This document shows, piece by piece, positions 31,958 through 37,164 of a DNA stretch of 60,313 nt (position 1 is its first letter; every line of letters starts with the position of its first letter). Under the pieces are notes generated by a model. The model saw only the letters and a list, made by a program, of their open reading frames with translations, did no database searches and was not told the origin of the DNA. Source of the DNA: Nitrospinae bacterium bin107 (lineage in GTDB: Bacteria; UBA8248); NCBI GenBank assembly GCA_002238965.1, contig MPNJ01000024.1:1-60313 (forward strand). Direction: 5' to 3'. The position numbers and the translations under genes are program-made.

Positions 31958-32085
31958 GTTTTATAATATTAAAATATGCAGACTTTTTCGATTTGCACCG
32001 GAGTACGCCTCGCCGACCTGGATGGAAATAAGCGGCTTATTGCGTGAACAAGCCTGTATTTCAAGGATATATCGGCCTCAAGCCT

Positions 32086-32113
32086 TTGCAAAAAGACAAA
32101 AAAGTAGTATATT
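32086..32113 (+). promoter_or_regulatory. candidate promoter for the A-type FeS carrier gene
   Basis: TTGCAA (32086-32091) and TATATT (32108-32113) are 16 bases apart, 61 bases before the gene's ATG. It is divergent from the clpB promoter. Confidence 0.4.
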
Positions 32114-32174
32114 CAGGGTGTGGATATCACAATTAATCTTGGTTGCCATTAACAAGGTCAAGGAGAAACAACAG

Positions 32175-32558
32175 ATGACGGATGGAACGGTCACTTTATT
32201 CGATCAGTCCCAAGAAAAACCCCAAGCCCTTGAAGGCATTATGGTTACGCCGCTCGCCCGCCAGAAGGTGAGCGAGATTCTCGAGGCGGAAGGCAAGACC
32301 GGTCACGGGCTGCGTCTGGCCGTCACGGCCGGCGGCTGCTCGGGTTACAACTATGGCCTGTATTTCGAGGAATCCGCCAATCCCGAGGATAAAGTGTTCT
32401 CCGCCGATAGCTTCGACGTGTTCGTGGACCCGCAGAGCTATCCCGTCATCGCGGGAACGGAGATTGATTTCGTCGACAGCCTCCAGGGCTCGGGCTTCAA
32501 GATCAACAACCCCAACGCCATGGGCATGTGCGGCTGCGGCAAATCGTTCACCACTTGA
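32175..32558 (+). CDS. A-type iron-sulfur cluster carrier (IscA/ErpA/SufA family)
   Basis: The 127-residue protein has the three conserved cysteines of A-type carriers: one in TAGGCSGYNYGL and the closing pair in MGMCGCGKSF. It receives or carries Fe-S clusters to apoproteins in the cytoplasm. The ATG at 32175 lies nine bases after AAGGAG; the reading frame is open farther upstream but without support. It is monocistronic, ending at a strong terminator. The next gene encodes a radical SAM FeS protein, a possible client. Confidence 0.92.
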   Translation: MTDGTVTLFDQSQEKPQALEGIMVTPLARQKVSEILEAEGKTGHGLRLAVTAGGCSGYNYGLYFEESANPEDKVFSADSFDVFVDPQSYPVIAGTEIDFVDSLQGSGFKINNPNAMGMCGCGKSFTT

Positions 32559-32576
32559 ATAAACAATACCTTACGA

Positions 32577-32609
32577 GCCCCGGGTATCACGCGCCCGGGG
32601 CTTTTTTTA
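32577..32609 (+). terminator. intrinsic terminator after the A-type carrier gene
   Basis: GCCCCGGG (32577-32584) pairs with CCCGGGGC (32594-32601) and is followed by TTTTTTT. It lies 19 bases after the stop. Confidence 0.9.
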
Positions 32610-32630
32610 TGCCGGACGAGAGAGGCTGCC

Positions 32631-34085
32631 GTGAACCGAAACGATAAGGCATCCGAGTGGCGCGCCCCCGGCGCCGTCGTCCTCATCTCCTGCTACGAAC
32701 TGGGACATCAGCCCCTCGCCGTCGCCTCGCCCCTGGCTTTTTTGCGCGAAGCGGGCTTCCGTCCCCGGGCGATGGACATCGCGGTTGAGGATTTCTCAGA
32801 AGAAAAAATCGCAAACGCGAAATTCGTCGGCATCAGCGTACCGATGCACACCGCGCTCAGGCTCGGCGTGGAGGTAGCGGCGAAAGTACGCGAGACGAAC
32901 CCCGAGTGCCACATTTGTTTTTACGGCCTCTACGGCCTGCTCAACAAAGACTATCTACTTGAAAACGGCGGGGATTCGACCATCGGCGGCGAGTTCGAAC
33001 TGCCGCTCGTGAAGCTCGTTCAAGGACTGTCCCAAGACTCCGGCGCCACCCAGGTTCCCGGCGCAGCCACGAGAGAGCACACATCCGGCCCGTATCTCGA
33101 GAAAATCCCGCTTCTCAAGCCCGAACGAGAAGGGTTGCCAGCGCTCCAGGCGTACGCCCACCTCGTAAATGGAGAAAATCACTACCCCGCAGGGGCCGTC
33201 GAGGCGAGCCGCGGCTGCAAGCACTTGTGCCTCCATTGCCCCATTCCGCCGGTCTACGATGGCCGTTTCTTCATCGTGCCCCAGGACAAGGTTTTAGAGG
33301 ATATCGAAGATTTGGCGGCGCAAGGCGCGCGCCATATCACCTTCGCGGATCCGGATTTCCTGAACGGCCCCTCTCATGCGCTTCGAGTCGCCCGCGCCAT
33401 GCACGAGCGGTTTCCGGCGCTCACCTTCGATTTCACGGCCAAGGTGGAACACCTCATCAAACACGAGGAACTTCTGCCGGAGTTCAGAGAATACGGATGC
33501 GCGTTTTTCGTCACCGCGGTGGAATCTTTAAGCGACCTCGTCCTCCGTCATCTGGACAAGGGACACAGCAGGGAAGACGTTTTTCGCACCGTGAAAGCCG
33601 CCCGGCAGGCGCGCGTTTCCATCAGGCCGTCACTGGTCGCATTCACGCCGTGGACGAGCGCTCAGGACTATTTCGATCTGCTGGATTTCATCGAAGAATA
33701 CGCACTAATCGACGAGGTCGACCCCATTCAGATGGCCATTCGGCTGCTGGTGCCGCCGGGGTCCTACCTGCCCGGCTCCAAACAGATGGAGAGATACATC
33801 ACCGAACTCGACGCCGAGAATTTCATCTACCGATGGGAGCATCCGGACAGAAGGATGGACAAACTGCACGAAGAAGCGCTCATCTTGGCCGAAGATGCGG
33901 CAGCGCGCCAGGAGGATGCCGCCACAACATTCATGAGGATTCGCGAATTGGCGGCCGACGTTCTCGAACGCCCCGAACAGGCGCGGGCAAAGGCCGTCTT
34001 CGCGCCCGATCGAATCCGCCCGCCTCGCCTGACGGAATCGTGGTTTTGCTGAGCGGAGCCCACCCAGGGCCAGTTGGCCCTCTAA
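32631..34085 (+). CDS. B12-binding radical SAM selenoprotein with C-terminal Cys-Sec-Ala-Glu-Pro tail
   Basis: The protein has a cobalamin-binding-like N-terminal domain (about 15-130) and a radical SAM core with cluster ligands Cys196, Cys200 and Cys203 (CKHLCLHC). A helical C-terminus follows. A conventional call stops at TGA 34050-34052, but the frame continues as Ala-Glu-Pro-Thr-Gln-Gly-Gln-Leu-Ala-Leu to TAA at 34083-34085. This gives 484 residues with Sec474 in a Cys-Sec-Ala-Glu-Pro motif. I recall a radical SAM family named for a CUAEP/CCAEP tail, which this matches. A six-base hairpin sits just downstream of the UGA. GTG start after GAGAGG. Substrate unknown. Confidence 0.85.
34066..34081 (+). 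promoter_or_regulatory. candidate bacterial SECIS hairpin for the radical SAM selenoprotein
   Basis: AGGGCC (34066-34071) pairs with GGCCCT (34076-34081) around an AGTT loop. The loop lies about 20 bases after the UGA at 34050-34052, within the spacing known for bacterial SECIS elements that bind SelB. It overlaps the last codons. Confidence 0.55.
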
Positions 34086-34101: not shown

Positions 34102-34452
34102 TTACGTCAATATCCTTGTGTAGGTATCTTCATCGAAGCCGACGATGAGGGTGCTCCGGTGTTTGATGACCGGCGCTCTGAGCGTGCCCGAGCGACCCAT
34201 CACTAGAGTCAGCACGTCTTCGCGCGCAGGTTTTTCTTTTTTGATATTCAGGTGAATGACTTTCCTGCTCTTGGTCGAATACAGGTCCGTCACGCCATCC
34301 AGAAACGAATCGACGTTGCCCTCATCCACCACGTCTTTCCTGGAACTGGCCTGCTCTGTAACCTCGATACCGTTTTCCGCAAGAAACGCTTGCGTTTTGG
34401 CGCAGGTCTTTCAGCCTGAGCGATGGTAGTACCAATCCACTGTCTTCGACAT
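34102..34452 (-). CDS. small selenoprotein with Sec-x-x-Cys motif, ArsC/Spx/thioredoxin-like fold
   Basis: The frame from ATG 34452 to the stop at 34102 is open except for one TGA at 34411-34413 (codon 14). Read as selenocysteine it gives a 116-residue protein starting MSKTVDWYYHRSG, then Sec-Lys-Thr-Cys (14-17) and AKTQAFLAENGIE. This is the redox motif and first helix of ArsC/Spx or glutaredoxin-like proteins. The C-terminus has the fold's cis-Pro region in TLRAPVIKH and ends LIVGFDEDTYTRIL. GAGGAG lies upstream of the ATG. A conventional call would start at an internal Met and lose the active site. Convergent with the radical SAM selenoprotein, 16 bases apart. Confidence 0.85.
34378..34394 (-). 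promoter_or_regulatory. candidate bacterial SECIS hairpin for the UxxC selenoprotein
   Basis: On the minus strand CGCAAG pairs with CTTGCG around a CGTTT loop. The stem begins 16 bases after the UGA at 34411-34413, inside the usual SelB-recognition window, and the loop contains the G-U often seen in such elements. Confidence 0.6.
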
Positions 34453-34566: not shown

Positions 34567-35280
34567 TCAAAGATTCATTACTGCGACGGCCCGTATGGGA
34601 GAGCCCGTGCCATCGCGAATCTTCAGCGGAAGCCCCACATAGAGGAATTCCTCCCCCGCCACGGCTTCGATGTTCGCCAGATTTTCCGTGTTGTGGCGCT
34701 GAAGCTCCCGGCAAAGCACATGACAGGGAAACGTGAGTTCTATGGTGTTCACGCCGGCGTCGATGCTGGGCGCATCCTGGCCGATGTTCACCACGCCGCA
34801 CTCGCGATAGAGGAAATTCGCGGCGTCATAGCCCAAACCCGGGTACGTGCTGAGATAATCATCCGTCGGGTAGGTGCGCTTGAAATGGCCGCCCGTGAAG
34901 AGGAGCGTGCCGTCCCTGGGGGGCGTCAAGTCCGCCGCGGAAAGCTCATCCTGCAAGAGCTGCAAGGAAATCTCCTCCATCGGCTCCACCTTGCCCGTGA
35001 AATCCAGCGCGACCGCCCGTGTAATGAACCACTCGAGCGGCGCCTGATCGATGTTCGGCGCCGTTTCCCGCTCGTCGATGTGGCTGACCGAATCGGTATG
35101 CGTCGGACCGTGATCGCACATGTGGAGCATCATGGCCGCATACGTGATGTCCTTTGGCTTGATAGGCGCATTGGCCGCATCTTCGTGCCGGGCGACGTAT
35201 TCGATTTCCGTCCCCGGATGCCCGGGAAACCTGGGCGCACCGGTGTAAATCTCCTGGCTCAGATCGATGATTTCGTACAT
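34567..35280 (-). CDS. cyclase-family metal-dependent hydrolase (kynurenine formamidase-like)
   Basis: The 237-residue protein begins MYEIIDLSQEIYTGAPRFPGHP and has the cyclase-family metal motif in the form DHGPTHTDSVSHIDE. The fuller family motif is HxGTHxDxPxH. Members hydrolyse arylformamides, cyclic amides or related compounds. ATG 35280 follows GAGGAG; an upstream in-frame ATG lacks this. It is 63 bases downstream of the LLM oxidoreductase gene in the same direction, suggesting a two-gene catabolic unit. Substrate unknown. Confidence 0.85.
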   Translation of the reverse strand: MYEIIDLSQEIYTGAPRFPGHPGTEIEYVARHEDAANAPIKPKDITYAAMMLHMCDHGPTHTDSVSHIDERETAPNIDQAPLEWFITRAVALDFTGKVEPMEEISLQLLQDELSAADLTPPRDGTLLFTGGHFKRTYPTDDYLSTYPGLGYDAANFLYRECGVVNIGQDAPSIDAGVNTIELTFPCHVLCRELQRHNTENLANIEAVAGEEFLYVGLPLKIRDGTGSPIRAVAVMNL

Positions 35281-35343
35281 GCTCATCTCCTCAAAATCTA
35301 TCCGAAAAGCCCCCGCATGCGGTGGCATCCTCGTCAAAAATAA

Positions 35344-36588
35344 TCAGGCGACACCGCCGACCGTTACGCCGTTCGACACCGGACACTCCAGGTCGGGCCA
35401 TATCTTCGTCATGAACGTTTCCAATTCGTAAATGACTTCTTCCTTGGGGCATTGCGCATAGTGCCAGATCAGGGTGATGAACTCAGAAGGCACTTTCTCG
35501 TACGTTTCCTCCCACTCGCGCTTGAGCTTGTCCACCGGACCACCCAGGAAGATGCCGCTTTCCTTGATGTTCTGGATCCAGTCGATGCTCTCCGTATCGT
35601 CGGGGAATTGCGGGAAGAAGGGCACGTAGAAGTTCTGGTAGATGTCCTGATCGTATTTCCTGAGTTTCTCGTCGTACTCTTCTTCTGTGTCCGTCACATG
35701 AATCCACCGGCAAACGCATTGGCGCTCGCCATGCGCAAAGTTGTGGCCCGCTTTGGCCGCTTCTTCAACGTAGAGGTGGGAGAATTCTTCCATCTTTTCA
35801 AGCTTTGTGAAATAAACGGGCCGGAACCCGTGCTTCGCCGCGAATTTTATGGAATCCGGGCTCGCGCTCACGGCCTGGAACATGGGCGGGTAAGGCTCCT
35901 GATAGGGCTTGGGAACAACGCTCACCCTCCGCACCCGATTGTCATCGCCGACTTCGCCGATTGCGCCGGCGTCCCGGGCGCTCTTCCAGGCCGGATATTC
36001 GATGCCATCCTCATACGGGTAAGGAATCTCGTAGTAATCGCCCTTCACTTCCACCGAATCTTCCTGCCAGAATTTCAGGAGCATCTCGACGCGCTCTTCA
36101 AAAATGTCGCGGTTCTTCACGTCGTCGGCCCCGCCGAGGGCGTCGGAGACAGTGGCCCGGGTGTCGCTGAACTGCCCGAGCACGTTCGACCACCTGGACT
36201 GATACCCTCTTGCCAAACCACAGAAGAACTTCCCCTTGGTGATGTGGTCGAGTATCGCCGTCTCCTCGGCCACGCGAATCGGATCTTGAGTCGCCATGAC
36301 GTAACCCAGCGCGCCCACCCGCGCATTCTTGACATGATTGGCCCACCAAGCGTTGAGAACGCCCGGATTGGGACCAACCTCGTAACCCTCCGAATGCAGG
36401 TGGTGCTCGATGGTGCTGATACCCCAGACACCCATCTCATCGGCGGCCTTTACGATATCGACCCATTCATGAAGCACGTGATGGTACAAATCCTTGTCCC
36501 TGGCCAAGGGCCGTTTCTGCTCGCGCTCCTCCCGGTTTTCCGTCGGCAGCATAGGATATAGCTGGATAATCACTTTGGGTTTCGCCAT
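35344..36588 (-). CDS. LLM-class flavin-dependent oxidoreductase (bacterial luciferase-like)
   Basis: The 414-residue TIM-barrel protein has the luciferase-like opening (EWVDIVKAADEMGVWGISTIEHHLHSEG) and the conserved segments LDHITKGKFFCGLARGY and PYPPMFQAVSASPDS. LLM enzymes use reduced FMN or F420 to oxidise substrates such as alkanesulfonates, nitriloacetate or terpenoid ketones. It is followed by the cyclase-family hydrolase and preceded by a MarR regulator in the same direction. These three probably form a regulated degradation unit. Confidence 0.88.
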   Translation of the reverse strand: MAKPKVIIQLYPMLPTENREEREQKRPLARDKDLYHHVLHEWVDIVKAADEMGVWGISTIEHHLHSEGYEVGPNPGVLNAWWANHVKNARVGALGYVMATQDPIRVAEETAILDHITKGKFFCGLARGYQSRWSNVLGQFSDTRATVSDALGGADDVKNRDIFEERVEMLLKFWQEDSVEVKGDYYEIPYPYEDGIEYPAWKSARDAGAIGEVGDDNRVRRVSVVPKPYQEPYPPMFQAVSASPDSIKFAAKHGFRPVYFTKLEKMEEFSHLYVEEAAKAGHNFAHGERQCVCRWIHVTDTEEEYDEKLRKYDQDIYQNFYVPFFPQFPDDTESIDWIQNIKESGIFLGGPVDKLKREWEETYEKVPSEFITLIWHYAQCPKEEVIYELETFMTKIWPDLECPVSNGVTVGGVA

Positions 36589-36621
36589 CGCCTTATTCTC
36601 CTTTTTAGACAGAGATTTTCT

Positions 36622-37164
36622 TCATCCTCGGGCGCCGGAGGCCGGCGCATGTTTTGATAAATTCATTTTATTCTTCACTTTATGGAGGAGCCTCGATAGT
36701 CTCTCTCTTTCATCGTCCTCCAAATCATTCATGAGGTCCGCTATGCGTGAGTAATAGTCCGGGAAAATGGCGTGCAGGCTCTCTTTTCCCTTGGGCGTCA
36801 GGCGCACGATGACTTTCCTCCTGTCTCCTTCGTGGCTGAAGCGCTCAATGAGCCCGTCGCGCTGAAGTCCCTTCATCAACCCGGTCATCGTCGCGCGCGT
36901 CACGCCCGCCTGCCCGGCCAGTTCGGACGGGCTGAGGCCCGAACCATTGTTTCTCACTTGCGAGCGCAGCAGCAGCAATAAAACGATGAATCTGCCCTGC
37001 GATACGCCGTGATTCGCCAGATACGTTTCAAAGGCGGTAAGCATATCGCTGCCTACCTGCAAGAAAAGATAAAAAAGCATGACGGAGGATGTATCCAGAG
37101 AGGAATACTCCGGTACGAGTGGCCTGAAATCTTCCTCGTTGGGCAGTTCTTTCATATAGAACAT
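36622..37164 (-). CDS. MarR-family transcriptional regulator
   Basis: The 180-residue protein has a winged helix-turn-helix with LSPSELAGQAGVTRATMTGLMKGLQRDGLIERFSHEGDRRKVIVRLTPKGKE, the MarR signature including the DRR wing. It likely responds to an aromatic ligand and controls itself and the LLM/cyclase genes 33 bases downstream. GGAG seven bases before the ATG at 37164 supports the start. A pair of direct repeats just upstream may be its operator. Confidence 0.9.
   Translation of the reverse strand: MFYMKELPNEEDFRPLVPEYSSLDTSSVMLFYLFLQVGSDMLTAFETYLANHGVSQGRFIVLLLLLRSQVRNNGSGLSPSELAGQAGVTRATMTGLMKGLQRDGLIERFSHEGDRRKVIVRLTPKGKESLHAIFPDYYSRIADLMNDLEDDERERLSRLLHKVKNKMNLSKHAPASGARG

What the first reader, a model, noticed from the sequence alone, without database searches (positions are those of the whole stretch)
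32631..34085. Radical SAM selenoprotein hidden by a UGA near its 3' end (Cys-Sec-Ala-Glu-Pro tail)
Conventional translation ends ...Trp-Phe-Cys at TGA 34050. The next codons GCG GAG CCC extend it as Ala-Glu-Pro and run ten residues to TAA 34083. A 6-bp hairpin with an AGTT loop lies about 20 bases after the UGA. The Cys-Sec-Ala-Glu-Pro motif matches a tail I recall for a B12/radical SAM family, so annotation pipelines would truncate it one residue before the functional Sec. The target chemistry is not known to me.
Basis: partly seen in the sequence, partly recalled or inferred. Interest (0 to 1): 0.9.

Follow-up and report, generated by a model that had tools for sequence, protein, structure and literature searches.

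The report
Radical SAM selenoprotein with Cys-Sec tail
A bacterial enzyme really does seem to carry a hidden selenocysteine at its tail end; the enzyme family is already catalogued, but its relatives nearly always come with a second enzyme of a kind that joins amino acids, which gives a concrete clue to what the pair makes.

Summary
Confirmed, and a member of a known family. The ORF at 32631-34085, read through UGA 34050 into ...WFCUAEPTQGQLAL, scores 670 bits (cut-off 500) against NCBIfam NF040546, 'CUAEP/CCAEP-tail radical SAM (seleno)protein'. Of 40 readable tails, window included, 35 have UGA and 5 Cys at that codon. The genome has SelA, SelB, tRNA-Sec and SelD.
New here: (1) A convergent gene 16 bases away (34102-34452, minus) is a second UGA selenoprotein, ArsC-like (NF041106). 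(2) The next-best family model is ArsL, which makes the arsenic amino acid of arsinothricin. (3) A ligase of the L-amino-acid-ligase type tracks the enzyme: in 16 of 16 carrier genomes outside the window's family (12 families) against 6 of 352 others, and in this genome. It has an invariant Cys that is UGA in three SelA-positive genomes: a candidate undescribed selenoprotein.
Best reading: the Cys-Sec tail holds a soft atom to which a SAM-derived group is added; the ligase couples the resulting amino acid. That chemistry is inferred (about 0.35); Sec is near certain.

The parts
32631..34085 (+). CUAEP-tail radical SAM selenoprotein gene, 484 residues with Sec at codon 474
33216..33239 (+). codons of the CX3CX2C motif (Cys196, Cys200, Cys203) that is expected to bind the radical SAM cluster
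   Evidence: numbering; invariant in 41 of 41 homologues; Pfam PF04055
34047..34061 (+). Cys-Sec-Ala-Glu-Pro codons, with TGA at 34050-34052
34066..34081 (+). hairpin AGGGCC-AGTT-GGCCCT, probable bacterial SECIS
   Evidence: not significant in the window alone, p 0.12
34102..34452 (-). convergent gene for a second selenoprotein, ArsC-like with a UxxC motif (TGA read on the minus strand at 34413-34411)
32022..32558 (+). A-type Fe-S carrier (IscA/ErpA-like) gene upstream, found near the radical SAM gene in 16 of 16 loci of the window's family
32575..32608 (+). terminator-like hairpin with T run between the carrier gene and the radical SAM gene, so the two may be separate transcripts
   Evidence: 4 terminator-like sites found in the stretch, 3.2 expected

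Best explanation
The gene makes a radical SAM enzyme whose UGA codon 474 is translated as selenocysteine, giving a C-terminal tail Cys473-Sec474-Ala-Glu-Pro. It belongs to the catalogued family NF040546. I propose that it works like its relative ArsL: the [4Fe-4S] cluster on Cys196/200/203 splits SAM, the Cys-Sec tail holds a soft atom or thiophilic substrate, and a SAM-derived group (most likely 3-amino-3-carboxypropyl, as proposed for ArsL) is added to it, so that an unusual amino acid results. A dedicated L-amino-acid-ligase-type ATP-grasp enzyme, which carries an invariant Cys (Sec in some) in a loop that aligns to the substrate pocket of BacD, then couples that product to another amino acid. 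Supported by computation: Sec decoding, family, the ligase partnership. Inferred: the group transferred, the atom bound, the product. Confidence: Sec 0.97; functional pair with the ligase 0.85; the transfer chemistry 0.35. The single figure below is for Sec plus the pair.
For: NF040546 at 670 bits, cut-off 500; second best is ArsL (NF040542) at 311 bits, third 57. TGA/Cys alternation at one codon in 40 tails. Stem-loop at a fixed place in TGA types, with arms that change together. SelA, SelB, tRNA-Sec, SelD present. Full SelA (E<=1e-50) in 26 of 29 UGA-type genomes, 0 of 2 Cys-type genomes, 152 of 354 genomes without the family. Only five Cys positions are invariant: three cluster Cys (41 of 41) and two tail positions (40 of 40). 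ArsL ends in CCLKC where this family has CU/CC (3 ArsL-type sequences). Ligase: 16 of 16 CUAEP genomes outside the window's family against 6 of 352, Fisher 2e-23; 12 of 12 families against 5 of 240; within about 3 kb in 13 of 25 loci outside that family; closest solved relative is the dipeptide-forming ligase BL00235. ArsL-type plasmid loci also have an ATP-grasp gene in 7 of 8 looked at, of 16 listed.
Against: No arsenic genes were found near CUAEP or ligase genes: twelve arsinothricin-cluster proteins against 61 loci gave one hit, a 31% ArsM match in L147, a genome without CUAEP. Neighbours point to iron and Fe-S handling instead (NfuA-like, A-type carrier, YggX). The CUAEP-linked and ArsL-linked ligases are only about 22-28% identical, and the two ArsL-linked ones compared lack the invariant Cys. 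Three UGA-type genomes lack a full SelA (G004, G016, G048; completeness 79, 98, 86%, contamination 3, 8, 1%). The window's own hairpin is not significant alone, and one Cys-type tail passes the hairpin test. In the window's family the ligase gene is not beside the radical SAM gene in any of 16 loci. Six genomes outside that family have the ligase without CUAEP.
Confidence: 0.83

Rival explanations
1. The Cys-Sec tail is a redox arm, like the C-terminal Gly-Cys-Sec-Gly tail of animal thioredoxin reductase (recalled): it shuttles electrons or resolves a disulfide in the active site and does not hold a substrate atom.
For: The tail is among the least certain parts of the model (pLDDT 62 and 55 in the last two blocks); the neighbour is a UxxC selenoprotein of a thioredoxin-like kind; Cys can replace Sec.
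Against: The relative ArsL also ends in a Cys-rich tail (CCLKC) and its substrate is As(III); Trp471, Glu476 and Pro477 are as invariant as the Cys pair, more than a bare electron arm seems to need.
Confidence: 0.25
2. The enzyme is a sulfur- or selenium-inserting radical SAM enzyme of the lipoyl-synthase type, with an auxiliary Fe-S cluster consumed in each turnover and rebuilt by an NfuA-like neighbour.
For: NfuA-like or Nfu/NifU-domain genes (below the NCBIfam NfuA cut-off) lie beside the radical SAM gene (L022, L075, L097, L078, L099) or beside the ligase (L142, L155, L147). A link of Nfu proteins with lipoyl synthase is in print (PMC9585516, search listing and start of abstract).
Against: Only three cluster Cys and two tail positions are invariant; C21, C96 and C290 are lost in 9, 5 and 4 of 41 homologues, which leaves too few ligands for a lipoyl-synthase-like auxiliary cluster.
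Confidence: 0.12
3. The product is not an organometalloid but a small metal ligand or cofactor for iron or Fe-S homeostasis, made by the radical SAM enzyme and the ligase.
For: Recurrent neighbours are Fe-S carriers, a YggX-type Fe(II) trafficking protein (7 loci, from four taxonomic families) and, in one Bacteroidetes record (L022), genes that look like a SUF operon (by eye).
Against: Fe-S genes could simply serve the cluster of the radical SAM enzyme; I saw no recurrent receptor or exporter among the neighbours printed, by eye only.
Confidence: 0.2
4. The UGA is an ordinary stop codon and the AEP extension is noise.
For: The window's hairpin alone is not better than synonymous shuffles (p 0.12).
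Against: Conserved extension in 40 tails, Cys at the same codon in five, hairpin at a fixed place, Sec machinery.
Confidence: 0.01

Closest known systems
NCBIfam NF040546 rSAM_CUAEP, CUAEP/CCAEP-tail radical SAM (seleno)protein
   Same: Whole length, cut-off exceeded, same tail, same Sec/Cys alternation
   Different: Nothing found; it is a member. The NCBIfam title gives no function.
ArsL (NF040542, rSAM_RCCLKC), arsinothricin biosynthesis
   Same: Second-best model at 311 bits; same CX3CX2C site; Cys pair near the C-terminus; an ATP-grasp neighbour in 7 of 8 plasmid loci looked at
   Different: Below the ArsL cut-off of 450; tail CUAEP instead of CCLKC, after about 50 more residues; Sec; no ars genes found nearby
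L-amino acid ligases BL00235 (3vot) and BacD (3vmm): relatives of the partner enzyme
   Same: ATP-grasp_4 plus LAL_C2 domains; 165 bits to 3vot, 57-58 bits to BacD
   Different: Invariant Cys or Sec in the GGxC loop, two residues after the Trp of BacD that I take to be Trp332; no NCBIfam cut-off met
NF041106 ArsC_rel_Se_1: convergent neighbour
   Same: 119 bits against cut-off 85, UxxC motif; listed as a predicted selenoprotein family in PMC13188914
   Different: Adjacent to the CUAEP gene only in the window's family; in the six other genomes with both genes they lie far apart

Membership tests
NF040546 CUAEP/CCAEP-tail radical SAM | score over the curated cut-off along the whole model | tested here: met
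   670.1 bits, cut-off 500, model 1-467 of 468
NF040546 CUAEP/CCAEP-tail radical SAM | C-terminal C-(U/C)-A-E-P tail | tested here: met
NF040546 CUAEP/CCAEP-tail radical SAM | CX3CX2C radical SAM motif | tested here: met
   Cys196, 200, 203 invariant in 41 of 41
selenoprotein | Sec insertion genes in the genome | tested here: met
   SelA, tRNA-Sec, SelB wing domain, SelD
selenoprotein | Cys homologues at the UGA position | tested here: met
   5 of 40 tails have TGC
selenoprotein | SECIS-like hairpin after UGA, in the family | tested here: met
   fixed place in 30 of 30 distinct TGA tails; better than synonymous shuffles in 23 of 30 (stem) and 19 of 30 (energy)
selenoprotein | SECIS-like hairpin after UGA, in the window alone | tested here: inconclusive
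   p 0.12 by stem, 0.11 by energy
selenoprotein | selenium in the protein | not testable with these tools
   needs 75Se labelling or mass spectrometry
ArsL (NF040542) | score over the curated cut-off | tested here: not met
   310.9 bits, cut-off 450
ArsL (NF040542) | RCCLKC tail | tested here: not met
   tail is CUAEP
ArsL (NF040542) | arsinothricin or arsenic genes nearby | tested here: not met
   12 queries against 61 loci at E<=1e-4: one 31% ArsM match, in a locus without CUAEP
cobalamin-dependent radical SAM | B12-binding domain over the Pfam cut-off | tested here: not met
   23.7 bits, cut-off 32.1
cobalamin-dependent radical SAM | same overall fold | tested here: met
   Foldseek top hits AprD4, OxsB, MgmA, TsrM; AprD4, the best, is recalled not to use B12
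lipoyl-synthase-type radical SAM | three further conserved Cys for an auxiliary cluster (recalled) | tested here: not met

The most novel reading that the evidence does not exclude
The CUAEP radical SAM enzyme and the GGC/GGU ATP-grasp ligase are the two core enzymes of an undescribed, widespread, selenium-linked small-molecule pathway: the first makes an amino acid around a soft atom held by a Cys-Sec tail, the second makes a dipeptide from it using a Cys or Sec in its substrate pocket. The ligase itself is a new selenoprotein family in some bacteria.
Probability: 0.35. Interest if true: 0.85.

Novelty: new member of a known kind. Interest (0 to 1): 0.55.

Why it matters
The family has a catalogue name but no function that I found (searches named under Tried and rejected). 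A partner enzyme present in 16 of 16 carrier genomes from 12 other taxonomic families, and a relative with known chemistry, turn 'unknown radical SAM selenoprotein' into a two-enzyme pathway that can be rebuilt in a tube. A Sec-containing amino-acid ligase would be a new place for selenium in biology. For annotation, at least one public record lists this enzyme cut off just before its probable Sec.

Tried and rejected
Literature: 'CUAEP' and six related terms gave no paper in the held open-licence library. The papers most likely to describe the family, Haft and Gwadz 2023 and Haft and Tolstoy 2025, are not held, so I cannot say that they do not. Of PMC13188914 I read passages and parts 1 and 2 of section 7, with all of Table 1 (119 families as it states); by eye, NF040546 and any ATP-grasp are not in that table, NF041106 is (part 3 not read). 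'ATP-grasp' with 'selenoprotein', 'selenocysteine' and 'UGA' gave 0 papers. Of PMC8552651 and PMC6920838 I saw passages, of PMC12013277 the outline and abstract (not used).

Arsenic as the target: considered because of ArsL and the ArsC-like neighbour; no ars genes nearby, so left open. ArsC-like selenoprotein as a constant partner: rejected as general. It is adjacent in 10 loci of the window's family only, and 5 CUAEP genomes of that family have no match at all; elsewhere it co-occurs at a distance (6 of 13 CUAEP genomes against 7 of 152 others, SelA-positive genomes outside the window's family, Fisher 9e-5; three of the six from one taxonomic family). Lipoyl-synthase-type auxiliary cluster: too few invariant Cys. 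Structure of the ligase: single-sequence model useless (pLDDT 37), not used. No model coordinates were available, so no distance from tail to cluster was measured. Rfam on the UGA region: two matches far below their gathering scores. Plasmid tblastn with the ligase: 333 records, all under 60% identity, not informative. Hairpins behind the UGA of the ligase and of the ArsC-like gene were listed but not tested against shuffles.

Full report
'f1', 'f96' and so on are the search tool's numbers for taxonomic families; f1 is the window's own.

1. The observation. The reading frame from GTG 32631 runs to TGA 34050-34052 and, read through, ends at TAA 34083-34085 with the tail ...TESWFC-U-AEPTQGQLAL. 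The hairpin AGGGCC-AGTT-GGCCCT is at 34066-34081. By eye, GAGAGG at 32620-32625 is a plausible ribosome site, and a terminator-like hairpin (4 such sites found, 3.2 expected) lies between the gene and the Fe-S carrier gene upstream.

2. What it is. NCBIfam NF040546, 'CUAEP/CCAEP-tail radical SAM (seleno)protein', scores 670.1 bits against a cut-off of 500. The second model is ArsL (310.9 bits, cut-off 450); the third falls to 57 bits. Pfam sees the radical SAM domain, and a B12-binding domain below its cut-off.

3. Is UGA read as Sec? Of 41 CUAEP loci (window included), 40 could be read at the tail with the pattern W(F/Y)C(U/C)(A/T)EP: 35 have TGA and 5 have TGC (L021, L022, L023, L078, L095). 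Behind TGA, in 30 of 30 distinct tails the best stem has 5-8 pairs and a loop starting at the 20th or 21st base, and the arms change together (GGGCC/GGCCC, GGGTC/GACCC, GGAGC/GCTCC, GAGTC/GACTC). It is better than synonymous-codon shuffles at p<0.05 in 23 of 30 by stem score and 19 of 30 by energy. The window's own p is 0.12 and 0.11. Among 5 Cys tails, four have their best stem elsewhere; L023 passes both tests (0.0499 and 0.002). The genome has SelA (C14:174702), a SelB wing domain (C14:178513), tRNA-Sec with anticodon TCA (C32:49578) and SelD with its own in-frame TGA (C32:206681). In 386 genomes, 32 carry the family over its cut-off: 29 UGA-type, 2 Cys-type (G074, G197), 1 truncated (G007). 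Full SelA (E<=1e-50) is in 26 of the 29, in 0 of the 2, and in 152 of the 354 genomes without the family. The three UGA-type genomes without it are G004 (79% complete), G016 (98% complete, 8% contaminated) and G048 (86% complete).

4. A second selenoprotein next door. On the minus strand, 34102-34452, a 116-residue ArsC/Spx-like protein has TGA in its UxxC motif (NF041106, 119 bits, cut-off 85). The two genes converge with 16 bases between. It is beside the CUAEP gene in 10 loci of f1, always with TGA; in G012 it is on another contig, and G007, G008, G009, G016 and G017 have no match. In the six genomes outside f1 that have both, the two lie far apart.

5. The partner. An ATP-grasp protein lies within about 3 kb of the CUAEP gene in 13 of 25 loci outside f1 and in 0 of 16 loci of f1 (some loci are short). 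It has the ATP-grasp_4 and L-amino acid ligase C-terminal domains (two copies; two more), and its closest solved relative is the ligase BL00235 (3vot, 165 bits). With a profile of 13 such proteins, 36 of 386 genomes carry it at E<=1e-60, 29 of them among the 32 CUAEP genomes. Outside f1 it is in 16 of 16 CUAEP genomes and in 6 of 352 others (Fisher 2e-23); by taxonomic family in 12 of 12 against 5 of 240, taking 252 families from the tool's numbering. Genomes are not independent, but the families are many. Three of the 16 (G129, G266, G197) match the profile only in part (E 4e-124, 3e-126, 3e-94); read in full they are 39-44% identical to the L023 ligase and have the GGxC motif. The three CUAEP genomes without it (G004, G006, G007) are fragmented f1 bins. 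In the window's genome it is at C14:125611-126834, on another contig than the CUAEP gene.

6. A third selenoprotein, probably new. The 13 CUAEP-linked ligases have an invariant Cys or TGA in ...RxxGGxC, and 20 of 20 further ligase loci fetched have Cys there. It aligns two residues after a Trp of BacD (alignment) that I take to be Trp332, named as a key residue of the binding pocket (PMC6920838, passages). In three genomes of family f96 (G112, G250, G379: L073, L098, L093; two genera) this codon is TGA, with the conserved frame going on for the rest of the protein; all three have SelA, and each has a second ligase copy with Cys. The bases GGGAC-CGGGAT-GTCCC follow in all three, but this hairpin was not tested: its stem score is 14, Cys copies score 9-15 on the same scale, and the lowest-energy fold of L093 does not contain it. 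No ATP-grasp is in the 119-family table of PMC13188914 (by eye). The case rests on the TGA/Cys alternation in one bacterial family: a strong candidate, not proof.

7. Mechanism. Across 41 homologues only Cys196, 200 and 203 (41 of 41) and the two tail positions (40 of 40) are invariant among Cys. ArsL likewise has its cluster Cys plus a Cys-rich tail (CCLKC; three sequences); arsL is required to make hydroxyarsinothricin from As(III) and is proposed to use the 3-amino-3-carboxypropyl group of SAM (PMC8552651, passages). Of 16 ArsL-type plasmid records with at least 80% cover I looked at 8: 7 have an annotated ATP-grasp gene near it (Priestia 3, Pantoea 2, Klebsiella 1, Alicyclobacillus 1); the Pseudomonas amygdali one, seen with a shorter flank and an incomplete gene table, has none. 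So both families tend to pair a Cys-tailed radical SAM enzyme with an ATP-grasp enzyme. The simplest joint reading is that the tail holds a soft atom, the SAM-derived group is added, and the ligase couples the resulting amino acid. The model of the protein (pLDDT 85, pTM 0.86) has the fold of AprD4, OxsB, MgmA and TsrM, with the tail among its least certain parts.

8. What does not fit. No arsenic genes were found around. Instead A-type carriers (16 of 16 f1 loci, and five loci of other lineages: L022, L075, L078, L097, L099), NfuA-like proteins and YggX recur, and in L022 the gene sits among genes that look like a SUF operon (by eye). This may mean cluster upkeep, a lipoyl-synthase-like sacrifice of a cluster (disfavoured by the Cys count), or a product that serves iron or Fe-S homeostasis. 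The ligases of the two families are only about 22-28% identical, and the two ArsL-linked ones compared lack the Cys.

9. Verdict. The finding is right; it is a new member of a known family. The ligase partner, the candidate Sec ligase and the ArsL parallel are, as far as my searches go, additions that make the unknown chemistry testable.

Noticed in passing
window 34102-34452, minus strand: A second UGA selenoprotein gene, ArsC-like (NF041106) with a UxxC motif, convergent with the radical SAM gene and not in the ORF list of 80 aa or more.
   Followed up: yes
L073:9018-10265, L093:9349-10578, L098:9503-10750: ATP-grasp L-amino-acid-ligase-type genes with in-frame TGA at an otherwise invariant Cys: candidate new selenoprotein family.
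   Followed up: yes
G000:C14:125611-126834 (L142): The Cys form of the same ligase in the window's genome, next to an SDR gene and convergent with an NfuA-like gene.
   Followed up: partly
L081, L082, L162, L163, L164, L165, L166: RCCLKC-tail (ArsL-type) radical SAM genes on plasmids have an ATP-grasp gene nearby in 7 of 8 records looked at, which suggests that some arsinothricin-type clusters make a peptide.
   Followed up: partly
L022:186-6002: In a Bacteroidetes record the Cys form of the radical SAM gene lies among genes that look like a SUF Fe-S assembly operon (by eye), with an Nfu_N/NifU gene downstream.
   Followed up: partly
window 34567-37164, minus strand: Cyclase-family, luciferase-like monooxygenase and MarR genes in one run, kept behind the pair in related genomes, also in L079 where the ArsC-like gene is missing.
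   Followed up: no
G000:C32:206681-207643 (L057): SelD of this genome has one in-frame TGA, so it is probably a selenoprotein too, a known kind.
   Followed up: no
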